Virus record (IMG/VR): IMGVR_UViG_3300030061_004132
Coordinates: 21,940-85,939 of that record
Reading direction: 5' to 3' (one strand)
Length of the DNA stretch: 64,000 bases
From: a virus
The notes under the pieces: model-generated
What the model was told of the DNA's origin: nothing
Databases searched by the model: none
The model's input: only the letters and a program-made list of their open reading frames with translations
Program-made: the position numbers and the translations under genes
Shown here: positions 10,305 to 54,795 of the stretch, one piece after another
Layout of the letters: every line of letters starts with the position of its first letter
How positions within the stretch are numbered: position 1 is the first letter of the stretch

Positions 10305-10326
10305 ATAAACTCCGTTTATTAAAAAA

Positions 10327-10677
10327 TGGAGACGGCGGGAGTTGAACCCGCGTCCGGAACAATTTTCAATTCAAGTCATTCACAGGCTTGTCTGATTAAC
10401 CCAACCAGAGGGGCTGCTACAAAAAACCCGCTTCCTATGTAGCCTCAGAAGTCCACCCACTGTAAGTGGGGTAACCATTGTGATTTTTTTATTTTCGCAG
10501 GAATCAACCTGTTATCTTAGGTTGGGTATCAAGGTCCTAAGAAACCCCGCGATTATGCCGCTAAGGCAAGTTCGAAGTGATTATTGTTATTGGCAATTAT
10601 CAAATGGTTTGATTTTAAAGTCTCACGACTGCCTGCACTATCCTCTTCTATTCCCCCGTCGAATCCTGAACGTCCCC
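10327..10677 (-). ncRNA. ssrA: Transfer-messenger RNA (tmRNA)
   Basis: On the minus strand the 5' end GGGGACGTTCAGGATTCGAC and 3' end GGTTCAACTCCCGCC...GTCTCCA are the conserved tRNA-like ends. GGGGAC pairs with GTCTCC, leaving a discriminator A. CCA is not encoded. The tag frame at 10553-10594 starts at a GCC resume codon and reads ANNNNHFELALAA then TAA. The -LALAA end fits proteolysis by ClpXP-type proteases. Length 351 bases. The mRNA-like part contains many paired segments consistent with pseudoknots. It starts five bases after the Flp pilin stop. Confidence 0.95.
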
Positions 10678-14962: not shown

Positions 14963-16381
14963 TTAGTTTTCTTTATTGCCTATATTAAATTTTTCCATCA
15001 AAAGACGTTTAACCTCTTGATTCTTCCATTCTTTTATGGAAGATGTGGTCTTTCTGATAATATATCTTATGCGATTGCCATTTATAAGACCGGGATTATT
15101 TCTACCCTTGGCACTTATTTTATTTTTTGCAAATGTATCTGATAAATTGCCCCCACAAACTTCATTATTACCAATGTATATGTCACAATGGTATTTTCCG
15201 TAATTAGATGGAATATAACAAACAATATCGTTTGGCTCATAACTATAATTTAGCTCTTCTGGGGTGAATAACTGGTACCCGTTGGCCCCACTTCTTCTAT
15301 TTTTTCTAGCACGAATCATATAATCTGTATGACTAGCACTCCTGGGGAAATCATTGTCGGATCGGAAACACCAAGATATGGCCACTGCGCTCCATGGTGT
15401 TCGAGAACTAAAACTATTTGCATTCTCTGGCGTTACTTGATTCCACCCACACCACCTCCACATAGCCGCTAAACGCTCAGCTAATTCTGGGTCATCCTCC
15501 TTCCTACCTCCCCAAATGGCCAACTCCGCCACCGCGTCCCGTGAAGGATTCCCCGTACTAGTGAGTATATTAGAGTCCAAAGACAGCTCAGAGCCTAGAT
15601 CCTCGACACTTTCGGGCCCACGGAACGCCATGTCACCAGATACTGGCTGCCATGTGCCATCAAATTTCTTATAGAAACGACTTTTGGAGTATATCCTGTT
15701 TTTTTCTGACTCGGACATTTTTTCCCATTGTTCTACAGGAGGTATACTTAGATTGAGACCTACGTCGATCATATCAGGCTTATTTCCAATTTTACTTTTA
15801 TTATTCTTATAGATTAGCGGCCACTTGTGGACATTTCCATAAAATTTACCGGATATACTTGATAAAGTGTCCCCAGATTCGACTTCATACTGTTGATTTT
15901 CTATTTCCTTGATAATAGACTCGGAGGTGACATACATTTGATAATTATCTTTATATCTTTTCTTATAATCATCCTCCCAATCCCGAAAACACATATTTCC
16001 TAATAAATAAGCCTCTTTCTCCATCTTTCTTAAGTGCGGATCCTTTTGAGCATACTGATCGCCGCCTAAACCACCGCTAAAATCAAATTGACCTTTGCAG
16101 TTCTGCATGTGATGTACTAATTCATGAGATAATGACCTCAAAACATCTTTAGGGTGTCGATTATCCACATAAACAACTATAATTTCTGTTTGTGGGTCGT
16201 AATGAGCCGTTTTTCCAAGTAATTTATACGCATTTTCCTTATCCGAAGAAAAATGTATGGTCGGAGGCCTATTAAAACCTATTCTTTTCTTTGCGAATGG
16301 TAAAAAATCATTAATAAGAGGCTTTAACTTAACAAAATTTTGATCCGACTTGTTGATTATATTAAATCTCACTTGTGACAC
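14963..16381 (-). CDS. Three-module virion lysin: zincin, LysM and DUF2272-like peptidase
   Basis: A 472-residue protein. Module 1 has a zinc site H86-E-L-V-H90 (LSHELVHHM) and a downstream MEKEAY glutamate. Module 2 is a LysM cell-wall-binding domain at about 164-214 (YEVESGDTLSSISGKFYG). Module 3 (about 278-425) has TPWSAVAISWCFR and SASHTDYM, the cysteine/histidine pattern of DUF2272-type cell-wall peptidases. The C-terminal end, IKEWKNQEVKRLLMEKF, matches the N-terminal leader of the neighbouring gene. Start is GTG at 16379-16381, or the better-spaced GTG nine bases later. Confidence 0.8.
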   Translation of the reverse strand: MSQVRFNIINKSDQNFVKLKPLINDFLPFAKKRIGFNRPPTIHFSSDKENAYKLLGKTAHYDPQTEIIVVYVDNRHPKDVLRSLSHELVHHMQNCKGQFDFSGGLGGDQYAQKDPHLRKMEKEAYLLGNMCFRDWEDDYKKRYKDNYQMYVTSESIIKEIENQQYEVESGDTLSSISGKFYGNVHKWPLIYKNNKSKIGNKPDMIDVGLNLSIPPVEQWEKMSESEKNRIYSKSRFYKKFDGTWQPVSGDMAFRGPESVEDLGSELSLDSNILTSTGNPSRDAVAELAIWGGRKEDDPELAERLAAMWRWCGWNQVTPENANSFSSRTPWSAVAISWCFRSDNDFPRSASHTDYMIRARKNRRSGANGYQLFTPEELNYSYEPNDIVCYIPSNYGKYHCDIYIGNNEVCGGNLSDTFAKNKISAKGRNNPGLINGNRIRYIIRKTTSSIKEWKNQEVKRLLMEKFNIGNKEN

Positions 16382-16396
16382 CTACAAAGAATACAC

Positions 16397-16405
16397 TATA
16401 AATAG
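16397..16405 (-). promoter_or_regulatory. Late-promoter-like motif CTATTTATA
   Basis: Minus-strand CTATTTATA 16-25 bases before the lysin start codons, one of a set of related sites. Confidence 0.35.
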
Positions 16406-16415
16406 TCTGGTAATA

Positions 16416-16667
16416 TCAGAATACCTCTAGGTTTTTTACACTAGAAACAACAGAAAGTGAAGATAACAAAAATTCATAGTGCTGTTTGTCGGCCAAAGAA
16501 TTGACTTTTGCCACTAAAACGTCGCGATTACCCATCTTTTTTTTAAAAATTCTCACTATTAGACCAATATTTTCACCTTTACCCAACGCGCTCCATGAAA
16601 CTAAATCACCAACGCTAAACAAATGTTGATATTCGTGACCAAAAACGGTGTTATCAGTCTTCATCAT
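16416..16667 (-). CDS. Small SH3/KOW-like protein
   Basis: An 83-residue protein with FSVGDLVSWSALGKGENIGL then a turn and VLVAKVNSL, the strand pattern of small SH3-like barrels that recurs in several small genes of this phage. It overlaps the preceding gene by 14 bases. Function unknown. Confidence 0.6.
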   Translation of the reverse strand: MMKTDNTVFGHEYQHLFSVGDLVSWSALGKGENIGLIVRIFKKKMGNRDVLVAKVNSLADKQHYEFLLSSLSVVSSVKNLEVF

Positions 16668-16962
16668 CCCTTGCGTCTATTAGTTGTCTCTCAAGTTTAG
16701 CTTTTTCATATGAAACAGCCCTTATTAGGTCATCCATGAGATCGAATATTGTTCTCTTAAGGACAATGACATCAACAGCCCCAGAATTTAAGTCGCTTGC
16801 TATACCATCAGACAAACCCTGTACTAGATTTATAATTTTATCCATAGTATGAAGGTATGGCTGCATGGCTAACGTGTGTTTATCTCCATGGTAGGCCATT
16901 GTGTCATATATTTCTTTTATTTCTTGTTCAATAAGCTTATCAATTTTATCAATTGTCTTCAT
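16654..16962 (-). CDS. Helical protein of unknown function
   Basis: A 102-residue, almost entirely helical protein (MKTIDKIDKLIEQEIKEIYD, later VIVLKRTIFDLMDDLIRAVS). It lies between virion genes and overlaps its downstream neighbour. No family recognised. Confidence 0.6.
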   Translation of the reverse strand: MKTIDKIDKLIEQEIKEIYDTMAYHGDKHTLAMQPYLHTMDKIINLVQGLSDGIASDLNSGAVDVIVLKRTIFDLMDDLIRAVSYEKAKLERQLIDARDDED

Positions 16963-16966
16963 TTTA

Positions 16967-17536
16967 TTATATCTCCACTATTTTTTCTGCGATTGTGAGA
17001 ATTGTATCTTGCACATCAAATTGGTCTTTAAAATCAGGCGCTAAATTGACACCATCTAAAGAAATGTTTGCCTCTTTGGATAAATTTTCTAATTTTTTTA
17101 TGCTTCTCTTAGCGGCAACAGCCGGAGAAGCTGGATATTTACTAAAAAGTCTGGTTTCATTTAGTTCGCCCGCGCCGTAACGAAGGTCTTTAGTCAGACC
17201 GGACCCTGACTTTACAAAATTCTTCTTGAATCTTCTGACAGCTTCAGTTTCAACACCCTTTACGCTCGTCGTTTCTGGGTCTTCTATCGTGTCGAGTTCT
17301 TTTTCTATATCACCAACAGTGTCTTCGACATCTTCTATCTTCTCTTTTTCGCTTTTCGCAACCTTTTTGGGTTGTTTTTCTTGAGGATCTTTCTTTTTAA
17401 CCTTGTCTTTTGTTTTTTTGACCGGAATATCCATCTCCCCAGCGATCATCTTCTCCATATTAGCACTAGTAAACTTGCTATTACTAGAAGAGTAGACTTT
17501 ATTCTTATCAATACCTTGTTCTTCAGCCTTTTCCAA
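16967..17536 (-). CDS. Lysine-rich virion protein, possibly the -1 frameshift extension of the upstream gene
   Basis: The open frame carries about 189 residues: a charged Lys/Glu segment and a C-terminal helical domain (SPAVAAKRSIKKLENL). No start codon with a ribosome binding site is present. The nearest candidate at 17536 is TTG with no Shine-Dalgarno sequence. The frame stays open upstream to the A10 run that ends the preceding gene and joins it in the -1 frame (KKLTKQQLYQKVLEKAEEQG). It is therefore either a programmed frameshift product or a homopolymer sequencing error splitting one gene. Confidence 0.6.
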   Translation of the reverse strand: MEKAEEQGIDKNKVYSSSNSKFTSANMEKMIAGEMDIPVKKTKDKVKKKDPQEKQPKKVAKSEKEKIEDVEDTVGDIEKELDTIEDPETTSVKGVETEAVRRFKKNFVKSGSGLTKDLRYGAGELNETRLFSKYPASPAVAAKRSIKKLENLSKEANISLDGVNLAPDFKDQFDVQDTILTIAEKIVEI

Positions 17537-17562
17537 AACTTTTTGGTAAAGCTGCTGTTTAG

Positions 17563-18336
17563 TTAGTTTTTTTTTTGGTCGTCCTCATCTTCAGGAGACT
17601 CTTCGGGCGCACTTTCAGGCTCAGGCTCAGGCTCTGGAGGGGCCTCTGGCTCATTACCCACCGCAGCCGCAGCAGTTGCCGCAGCAGCGCCGCCTACCTC
17701 GGGGCTAAAAAACCTTCTAAGTTTGCTTCCTTTCGGAAAAAGTTCTGCTACAGCATTACAAATAGTTTCTCTAAGTTCATTCGCAAGAGCCTCCACAACA
17801 CGAGCACTTTTGACAGCTTCACTAAACTGGTCAATCATAATCACGCCCCATGAGGTATTTTTATCGGCCCCAAGCTGTGTAGGTAGAGTTTTTGCGGCTA
17901 AGAATACAGAGGCCTGTGCAATGGCTTCTGCAATTTCTTGACAAGCAGATTCCTCACCTCTCCAAATTTGTAAAAGTTCACGAAATTCTATTTCTGCTAC
18001 GAAAGCAGCAACAGCCGCCCTAACATCCGGATTTTTTATACCCAACATGCCGACAAGCTTACCAAAAAACCAACGTTTTAAACCATTTAAGACACCCTCG
18101 TATGTGCGCCCTGGGCCACCTGCTGTCATACCAAGAAGGCCTGCAATGGTTGAACTAAGAGATTCATTCATAAGTGACAAACGATCAGTAAAATCCTCTA
18201 TACTACTAGATTCTGATAACAAAGAAACCAAAATCCTATCTTCTTTGGTTATATTGCTTCTCATATTTTCAATTATAATCTGATTTCTAATTTCGCTTGA
18301 TATCAAACTACGCAAATTTTCTTCGGTGAGTATCAT
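17563..18336 (-). CDS. Virion protein with alternative leader and Ala-rich core
   Basis: A 257-residue protein. N-terminus MILTEENLRSLISSEIRNQI resembles two other proteins at 35.6-37.3 kb (MILTSIELEQIIKEE, MIVTKSDIEKILSEE). The middle is an amphipathic and hydrophobic alanine-rich region (VRAAVAAFVAEIEFRELL, AEAIAQASVFLAAKTL). The end is a Pro-Glu repeat and then DDQKKN encoded over ten consecutive A, a likely slippery site. The predicted role is an internal head protein, inferred from context. Confidence 0.6.
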   Translation of the reverse strand: MILTEENLRSLISSEIRNQIIIENMRSNITKEDRILVSLLSESSSIEDFTDRLSLMNESLSSTIAGLLGMTAGGPGRTYEGVLNGLKRWFFGKLVGMLGIKNPDVRAAVAAFVAEIEFRELLQIWRGEESACQEIAEAIAQASVFLAAKTLPTQLGADKNTSWGVIMIDQFSEAVKSARVVEALANELRETICNAVAELFPKGSKLRRFFSPEVGGAAAATAAAAVGNEPEAPPEPEPEPESAPEESPEDEDDQKKN

Positions 18337-18355
18337 AATATTCTTCCTTCTAATA

Positions 18356-18365
18356 TATTAAATAG
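18356..18365 (-). promoter_or_regulatory. Late-promoter-like motif CTATTTAATA
   Basis: Minus-strand CTATTTAATA 20 bases before the ATG at 18336, identical to the site at 14950-14959. Confidence 0.4.
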
Positions 18366-18372
18366 TAATTAA

Positions 18373-19080
18373 TTACTTGTATTCCATATAAAATGGAAAT
18401 TTATCAAGAATGCCAAAAACAGCTATTACATGCTTACACACCTTGTTAATTCTATTGGGGTCTCTGACCACTGGGTCGGATGCTGTGCCTGCGGGGGTCT
18501 GGTACTGATAATTCCCAGCCTTTGCGTTGTATTCGGGTCCACCCCACTTAAAAAATGGACAGGTACATGAGACTTGTATGTCCGCCCTGTTAATATCTCT
18601 TAGATTGCCTCTTTTTAAGCCTTTTAAAGTTGTTATATACGAGCTTTTAGAGTTTGGTGGACATTTTTTATCGCCCTGTGCTCTACATCCCGGCACATTA
18701 AATTTCCACAAGCCTTGATCAGGTCGAGCATACACTAGCCTTATCCTGGGGGATCTATCTGGGTTTTCTATTTCTTGATCATATGGGTCGTTATTAGACG
18801 GCGACGGTGCTCCTCGGCCCACAATCACAGGGTTTGTAACACTACGAACGTCAGAATAGGTAGCCTCATTTAATAAAACACCCCTTCGAAGAAGTATTCT
18901 ATTAGTTTGGGACTCAATATCGTAAAATTCATTTTCACATAAAGTGGTCAAAGAATTTTTTAAATTTTCAAATAAAAATCTTGGCATATCATGACCGTTA
19001 CATACCCCACACGAATCAGAGTGATGTTCGTGTGGGGTATGTATAAAGTTTTTCCATGAATTTAATTCTTTGTTTTGCAT
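18373..19080 (-). CDS. SWIM zinc-finger protein
   Basis: About 235 residues from ATG 19078-19080. A GTG five codons earlier is possible. The C-terminal VSCTCPFF...CKHVIAVFGIL is a SWIM domain (CxCx-n-CxH), a zinc fold that binds DNA or protein. An N-terminal NSWKNFI resembles the leader family, and GVLLNEATYSDV contains an LxE-type site. A perfect 16-base-pair inverted repeat lies in the first part of the coding sequence (18999-19043). Confidence 0.7.
   Translation of the reverse strand: MQNKELNSWKNFIHTPHEHHSDSCGVCNGHDMPRFLFENLKNSLTTLCENEFYDIESQTNRILLRRGVLLNEATYSDVRSVTNPVIVGRGAPSPSNNDPYDQEIENPDRSPRIRLVYARPDQGLWKFNVPGCRAQGDKKCPPNSKSSYITTLKGLKRGNLRDINRADIQVSCTCPFFKWGGPEYNAKAGNYQYQTPAGTASDPVVRDPNRINKVCKHVIAVFGILDKFPFYMEYK
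18999..19043. repeat. Perfect 16-bp inverted repeat inside the SWIM gene
   Basis: Arms TACATACCCCACACGA (18999-19014) and its exact complement (19028-19043) with a 13-base loop. It encodes the His-rich HTPHEHH...CGVC stretch near the protein start, so the mRNA could fold a very stable hairpin close to the ribosome entry site. Confidence 0.85.
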
Positions 19081-19087
19081 TTTCTTA

Positions 19088-19492
19088 TTATACACCTGTT
19101 TTAAAAATTTGAAAAGTATATTTCATAGTTTCTGAGTTTTGAAGCAATTCTTCCCTATACCGGCCAGTCTTCTGTAGATCATCTATGTCGTGGCCCCTAC
19201 TCCTTGCATTAGAAAGAGCCTTCTTCATTGCCACTGATTTATCTATGGAGGTCCCCACACCGATTAACTCACCAGGTTCTTGTTCTGGGGCTGGCTCTTC
19301 GGATGGTTTCTTTTTCTTATGAAACAACTCTTGCATATCATCACTTGATGCGAGTGCTCGCTCTAAATCTAGCTTATGCTTCTTCCCCTCCGGGGTGTCG
19401 TCCCAGGTGCTCATAACAGCCTGAACTCGCTGTTGGAAGTCGTCTATCTCCTCAGCATCTCTTACTTCTTTAATTAATTTAATTTTAATCAT
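19088..19492 (-). CDS. Protein of unknown function
   Basis: A 134-residue protein beginning MIKIKLIKEVRDAEE with an acidic middle (SEEPAPEQEPGE) and a C-terminal segment (VAMKKALSNARSRGHDIDDL) that looks like a small alpha-beta unit. Its ATG overlaps the stop of the DNRLRE-like gene. Likely virion-associated by position only. Confidence 0.55.
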   Translation of the reverse strand: MIKIKLIKEVRDAEEIDDFQQRVQAVMSTWDDTPEGKKHKLDLERALASSDDMQELFHKKKKPSEEPAPEQEPGELIGVGTSIDKSVAMKKALSNARSRGHDIDDLQKTGRYREELLQNSETMKYTFQIFKTGV

Positions 19493-20205
19493 TATTTATC
19501 TCCCGAAAATCCTGATAACCCTGTACTATTTAGGTGGAGTTCACCAAAACCGCCCCCTCCAGCCTTTCTTTTCATTCTTTGTCCTTCCACTAAAGAATAT
19601 GAAATCTTTAAAGATGGACTACCAAGAAGTGACCCTGGGGCTATAATTGCAATCTCGTTACTTCTTGATGACGGCGTTGTACCATCAACATCTAATTTTG
19701 ATAACAAAAATATATTAAAATGACCCTTTTCCCTTATTACCTCATGCAAATGCTCTCTTAACCTGCCCTGAATTTTAATTTTGTTTACTCTACTAGCCCT
19801 TAGTGCTACAGCCCCAGGATTTCCTATCTGACCCCAGTCATTGAATTCACGACGATCACCCGTGCCGGTGGTTGTAATCGCTTTTGTATCAGCAAAAAGC
19901 ATAATTTCATCGCCTCCCCGATCAGCGGCTATAATCGAACTAGGAAATAGAGACAATTCTGCATCTTCTAAGCGGAACCCCTGCTGAGGAATATCAAGAC
20001 TGGTAAGATCAAAATTAAGATAGGCCCTAGCGCATGAAAAAGACCCATCACGATTAACATTGGCCTTTATAATAAGCCCACTCCTTGACGAGTCGCAGGT
20101 AGTACTACTAACTACAGTTCTCCAAGCATCTCGCCGCCCCCCGTCTAAGGTGTAAGTAAAGTTGCCGGTACCACCTTCCGACCGCCCTGAATGTAATCTA
20201 CCCAT
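19492..20205 (-). CDS. DNRLRE-like fibre/decoration protein A
   Basis: A 237-residue beta-rich protein. ARAYLNFDLTSLDIPQQGF followed by LEDAELSLFP is the core strand pattern of DNRLRE carbohydrate-binding-like domains. The C-terminus, MKRKAGGGGFGELHLNSTGL plus SGFSGDK, closely matches the end of the next gene's product although the rest differs. The shared tail suggests a common anchoring or sorting function. Confidence 0.65.
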   Translation of the reverse strand: MGRLHSGRSEGGTGNFTYTLDGGRRDAWRTVVSSTTCDSSRSGLIIKANVNRDGSFSCARAYLNFDLTSLDIPQQGFRLEDAELSLFPSSIIAADRGGDEIMLFADTKAITTTGTGDRREFNDWGQIGNPGAVALRASRVNKIKIQGRLREHLHEVIREKGHFNIFLLSKLDVDGTTPSSRSNEIAIIAPGSLLGSPSLKISYSLVEGQRMKRKAGGGGFGELHLNSTGLSGFSGDK

Positions 20206-25545: not shown

Positions 25546-26184
25546 ATGAAGCTTCTACTTGAAAAATGGCGAGGATATATAAACGAAATATCATTTGACG
25601 CTGTTAGTGCGTTTGAATTTGACGATCGCCAATGGGAACACAAAGCATACGTATATAGATTTTCTGATCATGAAGATCAAACCTATGAAGTAAAGTTCAA
25701 TCCAATGGATAGAGGTAGCATCATTAGTTGGGATATTGATTATAAGGTAGAAGGTGGCGAATACTATGAATTAACGGGCAAAAATATAGTTGTGAAAGTA
25801 ATGGCCACAGTAGCCCAGATTGTAATGGACTTTATTAAAAGACCCGATCGCCCAGTTGAACAACAAAAAAGAATTTTTTACTTTTCTGGGGCAATCGGAC
25901 CTGGTGAGACCGACGCGTTCGCGGGTATATCTGCTGGGAAAAGAACTAGGCTTTACACACACATGCTTATGAAGATGCTCCCGGCAGGGTGGGATATGTC
26001 AGTAGATTCTAAAACACCAAATGCTATTTGGTTTTTTAACGAAAAAGAACTCGGCAATTTATCAGAAGATGAAGAAAGATTTATTAGTAGTATGGGCGGG
26101 GACATAAAAGATATAAAGAACAAGATAAAAATGCCAGGTGTTCAGGGTATGCCAGGAGGTGAAGAAAATGAAGCTTCTATTTGA
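25546..26184 (+). CDS. Leader-bearing virion protein, unknown domain
   Basis: A 212-residue protein, leader MKLLLEKWRGYINEIS. The body has a beta-rich first part (YVYRFSDHEDQTYEVKFNP) and an alpha-beta second part (AGISAGKRTRLYTHMLMKML) reminiscent of N-acetyltransferase-like or toxin-like folds, but I do not recognise it. The coding end overlaps the next gene by 17 bases. Confidence 0.65.
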   Translation: MKLLLEKWRGYINEISFDAVSAFEFDDRQWEHKAYVYRFSDHEDQTYEVKFNPMDRGSIISWDIDYKVEGGEYYELTGKNIVVKVMATVAQIVMDFIKRPDRPVEQQKRIFYFSGAIGPGETDAFAGISAGKRTRLYTHMLMKMLPAGWDMSVDSKTPNAIWFFNEKELGNLSEDEERFISSMGGDIKDIKNKIKMPGVQGMPGGEENEASI

Positions 26185-52738: not shown

Positions 52739-52767
52739 TTCTTAACCGGGTGCATCTAAATCGTCAA
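52739..52767 (-). promoter_or_regulatory. Array promoter of the zinc-knuckle gene
   Basis: TTGACG 52762-52767, 17-base spacer, TAAGAA 52739-52744, in the end of the TadE-like gene. Confidence 0.65.
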
Positions 52768-53185
52768 GTGCTGGAAGCTCAATTGGCCAAGAAACACTGT
52801 AGGTCAGCGTTTCTGGCAGCATAGGGACGATGCCGGTTATTATATTAGATGATGTTGTCACCGTGCAGTCCATCCAAGGGACTGTCTCGGTTGTTAGTGA
52901 AGAAGCGTATGCAGCTACGGTACAGGAGGAAGTTGAGCAGTCAAGCATCCCATTCAACCCCATAGCATCTTTAATCTTTTGCTCTGCTATCTCGTAAGGG
53001 TTTGTATAGATGTCAACCATACTCATCGAACCCGCCTTACATCCAGCGGATACTGCATCTTGGAGACTATGTTTCTGAAGTAACAGCCACATAAAGTCGA
53101 TTCCACCAAATATTAGTGCTACGAAGACGGGTAGTATTAAAGCAAATTCTACAGCAACACCACCTCTTCTATTATTCATACTCAT
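52742..53185 (-). CDS. TadE/TadG-like pseudopilin
   Basis: A 147-residue protein. NNRRGGVAVEFALILPVFVA is the TadE-type prepilin start: basic, then G followed by hydrophobic residues with Glu at the +5-type position. One membrane helix (about residues 10-32) is followed by a periplasmic domain with Cys pairs (LDCSTSSC). TadE proteins are minor pseudopilins of Tad pili. The -10 box touches the first ATG, so translation may start at the second ATG (53177-53179) on a leaderless mRNA. Confidence 0.82.
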   Translation of the reverse strand: MSMNNRRGGVAVEFALILPVFVALIFGGIDFMWLLLQKHSLQDAVSAGCKAGSMSMVDIYTNPYEIAEQKIKDAMGLNGMLDCSTSSCTVAAYASSLTTETVPWMDCTVTTSSNIITGIVPMLPETLTYSVSWPIELPALDDLDAPG

Positions 53186-54122: not shown

Positions 54123-54195
54123 TGAGTCTTCAGGGACTCGAACCCTGAACCTACGGATTAAAAGTCCGGTGCTCTACCAATTGAGCTAAAGACTC
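54123..54195 (-). tRNA. tRNA-Lys (UUU)
   Basis: 73 bases. Acceptor GAGTCTT with AAGACTC, discriminator A. T-arm CAGGGTTCGAGTCCCTG, anticodon loop CTTTTAA reading UUU. CCA not encoded. Confidence 0.93.
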
Positions 54196-54697: not shown

Positions 54698-54721
54698 TAT
54701 CTCCCCCACCAATATAAATTG

Positions 54722-54795
54722 CGCCCCTTACTGGATTTGAACCAATGACACGCGGATTAACAGTCCGCTGCTCTAACCAACTGAGCTAAAGGGGC
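54722..54795 (-). tRNA. tRNA-Asn (GUU)
   Basis: 74 bases. Acceptor GCCCCTT with AAGGGGC, discriminator G, anticodon loop CTGTTAA reading GUU. CCA not encoded. The small ORF upstream ends at its first base. Confidence 0.92.

What the first reader, a model, noticed from the sequence alone, without database searches (positions are those of the whole stretch)
16967..18336. Two virion genes joined by a possible -1 frameshift on ten A
The first gene ends in CAAAAAAAAAACTAA. In the -1 frame the A10 run leads directly into the second frame (KKLTKQQLYQKVLEKAEEQG), which has no start codon with a ribosome site. A-rich slippery sites are established -1 signals. A homopolymer sequencing error is the simple alternative.
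Basis: partly seen in the sequence, partly recalled or inferred. Interest (0 to 1): 0.58.

Follow-up and report, generated by a model that had tools for sequence, protein, structure and literature searches.

The report
Phage protein extended by ten-A slippage
In an uncultured T4-like phage, two reading frames that look like two genes are most likely one gene read in two lengths because the cell's machinery slips on a run of ten A's; this is a new example of a known trick.

Summary
On the minus strand, a 257-aa frame (17563-18336) ends in C-A10-C-TAA, and the -1 frame runs on for about 200 codons (to 16967). The two frames overlap by only 22 nt, and the A10 lies inside. It is the longest A/T run in about 181 kb of this phage.

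Sequencing error is unlikely. A second assembly (IMG/VR 3300030202_003733) has the same A10, and 0 of 75 homopolymer runs of 7 or more differ over 91.9 kb. The second frame looks translated right up to the run: its 36 codons before the first ATG have the phage's own codon usage, AlphaFold gives a confident domain starting just after the run, the only start before that ATG is a TTG without a Shine-Dalgarno site, and both differences between the strains are synonymous.

Best reading: one gene, two products, joined by slippage on A10. Ribosomal -1 shifting is slightly favoured over polymerase slippage (in-frame A_AAA_AAC, upstream GAGGA, hairpin 11 nt downstream), but DNA alone cannot separate them. 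No diverged relative carries the junction; one distant homologue of the first part has its own in-frame tail. The first protein carries a leader shared by unrelated proteins, so a packaged head protein is plausible. New member of a known kind.

The parts
17563..18336 (-). first frame (0 frame), 257 aa: leader, helical domain, acidic linker, ends DDQKKN*
   Evidence: SD AGAAGGAAG before its ATG (-5.7 kcal/mol); AlphaFold helical domain residues 31-200 with pLDDT about 60-82 by blocks, linker 211-257 mostly under 50
18268..18336 (-). N-terminal leader MILTEENLRSLISSEIRNQIIIE, capsid-targeting-like module
   Evidence: same leader pattern at the N-terminus of unrelated proteins, 25 N-terminal vs 1 inner match
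17566..17706 (-). acidic, proline-rich linker just before the slip site
   Evidence: sequence; pLDDT under 50 for nearly all of it
17585..17587 (-). upstream TGA stop of the -1 frame; limits where a -1 shift can happen
   Evidence: (22-nt shared window), sequence
17582..17586 (-). [quoted passage not shown]
   Evidence: spacing rule from PMC4066793 (passage)
17567..17576 (-). A10 run (slip site); in-frame A_AAA_AAA at 17569-17575 and A_AAA_AAC at 17566-17572
   Evidence: identical in G001
17563..17565 (-). TAA stop of frame 0, directly after AAC
17524..17554 (-). 31-nt RNA hairpin, -11.6 kcal/mol, starting 11 nt after A_AAA_AAC
   Evidence: z -1.8 to -2.6 in the three shorter stretches folded, -0.35 in a 106-nt stretch
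16967..17566 (-). second frame after the run (-1 frame), about 200 codons, no good own start
   Evidence: codon usage as in phage genes; both strain differences synonymous
17429..17566 (-). predicted folded domain directly after the run (residues about 5-50 of P0001)
   Evidence: pLDDT 83-95 per 10-residue block for residues 1-50 from a single sequence

Best explanation
The two frames are one gene with two products. Normal reading gives a 257-aa protein (capsid-targeting-like leader, helical domain, acidic tail) that stops at TAA. A fraction of the time a slip on the A10 joins it to the -1 frame and gives a fusion of about 457 aa with an extra folded domain, a charged stretch and C-terminal helices. 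[quoted passage not shown] slippage by RNA polymerase adding an A is almost as likely (about 0.37 vs 0.33 of the total). Shown: the sequence layout, the identity of the run in two assemblies, the coding character of the second frame up to the run. Inferred: that a fusion is made, by which machine, at what ratio, and that it is packaged into the head.
For: A10 lies in the only 22 nt where a -1 slip can join the frames. Same A10 in a second assembly, 99.8% identical over 10.6 kb; 113 mismatches over 91,901 aligned columns and 0 of 75 homopolymer runs of 7 or more differ. The 36 codons between the run and the first ATG score 0.205 per codon in the phage's codon usage, above the 99th percentile (0.166) of 365 overlapping out-of-frame stop-free windows and above the median of true windows (0.172). 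AlphaFold gives pLDDT 83-95 for residues 1-50 of the second frame with helix 7-20, which the TTG at residue 15 would cut. TTG has no SD pairing. 2 of 2 strain differences in the second frame are synonymous (100% protein identity). Of 44 in-frame A_AAA_AAN heptamers in 36 window genes, only the two overlapping ones here have both an SD-like sequence at the published spacing and a downstream fold of -11 kcal/mol or better.
Against: No diverged homologue of the second frame was found, so conservation of the run cannot be tested. The one distant homologue of the first frame (L114) has a single in-frame tail and no such junction. Hairpin spacing (11 nt) is just outside the 4-10 nt rule of PMC4066793, its stability is only mildly unusual (4, 5 and 10 of 200 shuffles fold as well in the three shorter stretches; 59 of 200 in the 106-nt stretch), and two other heptamers (4117 and 5431) come close with SD and -10.5/-10.4 kcal/mol. 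A_AAA_AAC is a weak motif in E. coli (PMC4066793 passage). Three of 22 listed minus-strand starts also lack SD pairing (0.1, -1.1, 1.3), so absence of SD is not decisive. The 17434 ATG cannot be excluded as an extra start.
Confidence: 0.7

Rival explanations
1. The fusion is made by transcription, not translation: RNA polymerase adds one A (or drops two) on the A10, so part of the mRNA carries the frames in line. Same two products, different machine. (This is a variant inside the best explanation, not outside it.)
For: A runs of 9 or more slip in bacteria (PMC5009743, passages); dnaX genes with 10 A were assigned to polymerase slippage (PMC3711429); an A11 run in tssM gives 20-25% of the longer product by this route (PMC4256274).
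Against: The site also has an in-frame slip heptamer, SD-like GAGGA at the right distance and a hairpin, none of which polymerase slippage needs.
Confidence: 0.33
2. The A10 is a real but recent or switching length change (slipped-strand mutation): some phages have the frames in line, this lineage has the long form off, or the tail is on its way out.
For: Homopolymers mutate often (established knowledge, recalled); the distant relative L114 has a single in-frame extension at the same place.
Against: Both assemblies carry A10 although they differ by 113 substitutions over 91.9 kb; the second frame is intact, with good codon usage and only synonymous change.
Confidence: 0.15
3. The second frame is a separate gene with its own start (TTG 17536, or ATG 17449/17434), perhaps translated by coupling to the first.
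For: ATG 17434 and 17449 have purine-rich upstream sequence; gene overlaps are common in this phage.
Against: TTG has no SD pairing; the spacing for the later ATGs is 3 and 0 nt; starting there discards the codon-biased segment and the confidently predicted domain.
Confidence: 0.08
4. Sequencing or assembly error in the homopolymer; the true gene is one frame.
For: A10 is the longest run in the phage, the commonest place for such errors.
Against: Two assemblies agree at the run; 0 of 75 runs of 7 or more differ between them, and none of 9 indel events lies in a homopolymer run of 7 or more.
Confidence: 0.04

Closest known systems
-1 ribosomal frameshifting in phage head and tail genes (lambda G-T; phage A2 and T3 capsid extensions; Listeria phages)
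   Same: one start, two products, C-terminal extension reached by a -1 shift near the end of the first frame (PMC5009743 passages)
   Different: here the protein is not the major capsid protein or tail chaperone but a leader-bearing, probably internal head protein; no family match was found for the extension; not shown experimentally; no conserved relatives
Polymerase slippage on poly-A (dnaX of Thermus type; tssM of Citrobacter rodentium)
   Same: run of 9-11 A shortly before the stop of the short product
   Different: here the run also forms in-frame heptamers with an SD-like sequence and a hairpin; no mRNA data
IS-element A_AAA_AAC/A_AAA_AAG frameshift signals (PMC4066793)
   Different: hairpin 11 nt away instead of 4-10; not a transposase
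T4 internal proteins with a capsid targeting sequence
   Same: short N-terminal leader shared by otherwise unrelated proteins
   Different: leader sequence differs from T4's (recalled); no proteomics; T4 internal proteins are not known to me to be frameshifted (recalled)

Membership tests
-1 programmed ribosomal frameshifting (X_XXY_YYZ type) | slip heptamer in frame 0 within the overlap of the two frames | tested here: met
   A_AAA_AAA and A_AAA_AAC in frame 0 inside the 22-nt overlap
-1 programmed ribosomal frameshifting (X_XXY_YYZ type) | -1 frame is translated from the slip site onward | tested here: inconclusive
   codon usage, predicted fold and synonymous changes speak for it, but all are indirect
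-1 programmed ribosomal frameshifting (X_XXY_YYZ type) | stimulators: SD-like sequence and/or downstream structure at working distance (helpful, not always present) | tested here: inconclusive
   GAGG/AGGA 7-11 nt before the second base: within the 6-17 rule; hairpin -11.6 kcal/mol but 11 nt away against a 4-10 rule
-1 programmed ribosomal frameshifting (X_XXY_YYZ type) | conservation of the site across diverged relatives | tested here: inconclusive
   identical in G001, which is too close; no diverged homologue of the second frame found
-1 programmed ribosomal frameshifting (X_XXY_YYZ type) | fusion protein present, mRNA unchanged | not testable with these tools
   needs proteomics and cDNA
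Programmed transcriptional slippage | A/T run of 9 or more in the reading frame, frames joined by insertion or deletion | tested here: met
   A10; one added A gives the -1 frame
Programmed transcriptional slippage | mRNAs of mixed run length | not testable with these tools
   needs cDNA sequencing
T4-type internal head protein (capsid-targeted) | transferable N-terminal leader | tested here: met
   leader pattern N-terminal in 25 matches vs 1 inner; shared by P0002 and the unrelated L114:292-888 protein
T4-type internal head protein (capsid-targeted) | cleavage of the leader by the prohead protease; presence in virions | not testable with these tools
   an I-I-E triplet ends the leader, but the T4 cleavage rule is recalled, not tested

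The most novel reading that the evidence does not exclude
A T4-supergroup phage sets a fixed ratio of short and long forms of a packaged head protein by slipping on A10, so that a minority of copies carries an extra nucleic-acid- or partner-binding domain into the capsid or the host. The phage's own tRNA-Lys(UUU) and tRNA-Asn(GUU), which decode AAA and AAC, would tune that ratio.
Probability: 0.12. Interest if true: 0.62.

Novelty: new member of a known kind. Interest (0 to 1): 0.42.

Why it matters
Gene callers would list the second frame as a separate, truncated gene or miss its first 40 codons, so the long form would be absent from annotation. If real, it adds a leader-bearing, probably packaged head protein to the phage proteins made in two lengths by recoding, and offers a compact site on which ribosomal and polymerase slippage can be told apart directly.

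Tried and rejected
Homology: tblastn of both proteins and of the 50-residue module against 50,697 phage records gave nothing useful; blastn of 16000-19500 gave nothing. Pfam and PHROGs gave only weak, low-complexity matches to the two proteins. A weak P0001 match in L231 (19.7 bits) aligns charged helical sequence and was rejected; the weak matches in G008 and G019 were not followed further. Fourteen long genes standing just upstream of, or overlapping, the peptidase gene in other loci looked alike by eye, but hhalign supported only L114, which was one of the 15 compared. One search was run with a setting that forced end-to-end alignment and is superseded, where a further match, L196, covers only the low-complexity linker. 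Fold searches gave no match of use; VIA-align gave Z 2.4-2.5 for residues 6-66 against chains of four eukaryotic ribosomes, a weak lead only. Sequencing error was tested and set aside. A search for the other leader's letters in papers found nothing relevant. Paper searches for frameshifting in internal head proteins listed none that I recognised as such; I saw listings, and passages of PMC4066793, PMC5009743, PMC3711429, PMC4256274, PMC10885494, PMC9958956 and PMC10052503, not whole texts.

Full report
What is there. On the minus strand a 257-codon frame (17563-18336) ends ...GAC GAC CAA AAA AAA AAC TAA; the -1 frame runs from its upstream TGA (17585-17587) to the stop at 16967, about 200 codons past the run. 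The two frames share 22 nt, and the A10 (17567-17576) fills almost half of it. In the window and the related record G001, only three distinct A/T runs reach 9 or more: two A9 and this A10 (duplicates from overlapping pieces removed by me). A run of 10 is not rare in itself (3.2 expected by a first-order Markov count in 184,000 bases), but of 77 overlapping-frame continuations listed in that call none other holds a run above 7. That list is mechanical: it includes spurious ORFs and a few duplicates.

The genome. The window lies in a 93.7-kb viral record. G001 (IMG/VR 3300030202_003733, 183 kb) is a close strain: over 91,901 aligned columns there are 113 mismatches and 9 indel events, the indels all in two small clusters. 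Structural genes (terminase, portal, sheath-like; read by eye) and the terminase hits (best 44.5% identity, Flavobacterium phage immuto; also Synechococcus and enteric T4-like phages) place it in the broad T4-like group. The host is unknown.

Is the run an error? The same A10 is in G001. Of 75 homopolymer runs of 7 or more compared between the two assemblies, none differs. So an error at this one run in both is unlikely. The two genomes are too close for this to show long conservation.

Is the second frame real, and from where? Four results say that it is coding right up to the run. (1) The 36 codons between the run and the first ATG score 0.205 per codon in the phage's codon usage; 365 overlapping stop-free out-of-frame windows have a 99th percentile of 0.166, true windows a median of 0.172 (neither frame was in the training set). 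(2) AlphaFold on the second frame alone gives pLDDT 83-95 for residues 1-50 and low confidence for most of the rest; helix 7-20 would be cut by a TTG start at residue 15 and lost with an ATG start at 41-49. (3) The TTG has no pairing to the anti-SD (+0.3 kcal/mol), the first ATG -1.7, against a median near -6 for 22 minus-strand starts, of which three also lack pairing; two further ATGs have purine-rich upstream sequence at unusable spacing. (4) Both nucleotide differences between the strains in this frame are synonymous.

How it is joined. The run contains two frame-0 heptamers, A_AAA_AAA and A_AAA_AAC, the second followed at once by TAA. [quoted passage not shown] (PMC4066793, passages; author name recalled). 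A 31-nt hairpin of -11.6 kcal/mol starts 11 nt after A_AAA_AAC, one nt outside their 4-10 rule; 4, 5 and 10 of 200 shuffles fold as well in the three shorter stretches, and 59 of 200 in the 106-nt stretch. Of 44 A_AAA_AAN heptamers in frame in 36 window genes, only the two overlapping ones here combine the SD rule with -11 kcal/mol or better; two others come near with -10.5 and -10.4. A_AAA_AAC is weak in E. coli but very likely used by IS elements. On the other side, A10 is within the length at which bacterial RNA polymerase slips (PMC5009743, PMC3711429, PMC4256274; passages). I put the ribosome at about 0.37 and the polymerase at 0.33.

What the proteins are. The first frame has a leader, MILTEENLRSLISSEIRNQIIIE, then a helical domain (blocks of pLDDT about 60-82 over residues 31-200, two-sequence alignment) and a disordered acidic linker. 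The leader pattern is found at the N-terminus (first 40 residues of the open frame) in 25 matches and inside proteins in 1, although inner positions are 3.6 times as many (matches include duplicate loci). A protein in L114 (292-888) shares MILTEE.L.S with the first frame but not its body, while the L114 homologue of the first frame has another leader. Such an exchangeable leader is what a capsid-targeting sequence would look like, so I infer an internal head protein; no proteomics supports it.

Relatives. The only homologue of the first frame besides G001 is L114:2743-3681 (E 4.5e-6 by phmmer; E 5e-10 by two-sequence BLASTP). It stands in the same gene order, followed by a small gene in the place of the 102-aa gene and by homologues of the 83-aa and peptidase genes, but is one 313-aa frame with its own charged tail and no detectable likeness to the second frame. 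I searched 31 of 78 terminase-based records and 50 of 80 PhoH-based records, and the other fetched loci in a local search. So C-terminal extension at this place is shared; the slip junction is known only from this phage and its near twin.

Verdict. A credible case of recoding, resting on indirect coding evidence; a new member of a known kind, with the machine undecided.

Noticed in passing
window 10324-10677 (-): The phage carries a complete tmRNA gene (Rfam RF00023, 104 bits; tag ANNNNHFELALAA by ARAGORN).
   Followed up: partly
window 54123-54195 and 54721-54795 (-): Among five phage tRNAs are tRNA-Lys(UUU) and tRNA-Asn(GUU), the ones that read AAA and AAC of the slip site.
   Followed up: no
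window 23071, 32793, 28074, 28388, 28835 and others (+): Many unrelated proteins begin with MKLLxENWRxYLxE; a second leader class, MKxTKxxLKxIIxEEL, begins others. Both are almost only N-terminal (24 vs 0 and 25 vs 1), which suggests two head-targeting signals in this phage group.
   Followed up: partly
window 52742-53185 (-): A TadE-like pilus-assembly protein (Pfam TadE, E 4.7e-13) encoded in a phage.
   Followed up: no
G001 1-98 and 182,926-183,023: The first and last 98 bases or so of the 183-kb record map to the same window place (25961-26058), so the genome is probably circular or circularly permuted at about 183 kb.
   Followed up: partly
window 16970-17578, residues 6-66 of the second frame: Four eukaryotic ribosome chains (labels suggest eL19, recalled) match the predicted domain at Z 2.4-2.5 only.
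   Followed up: no
window 19915-19931: A cluster of differences between the two strains inside an otherwise near-identical gene, as left by recombination or local mutation.
   Followed up: no
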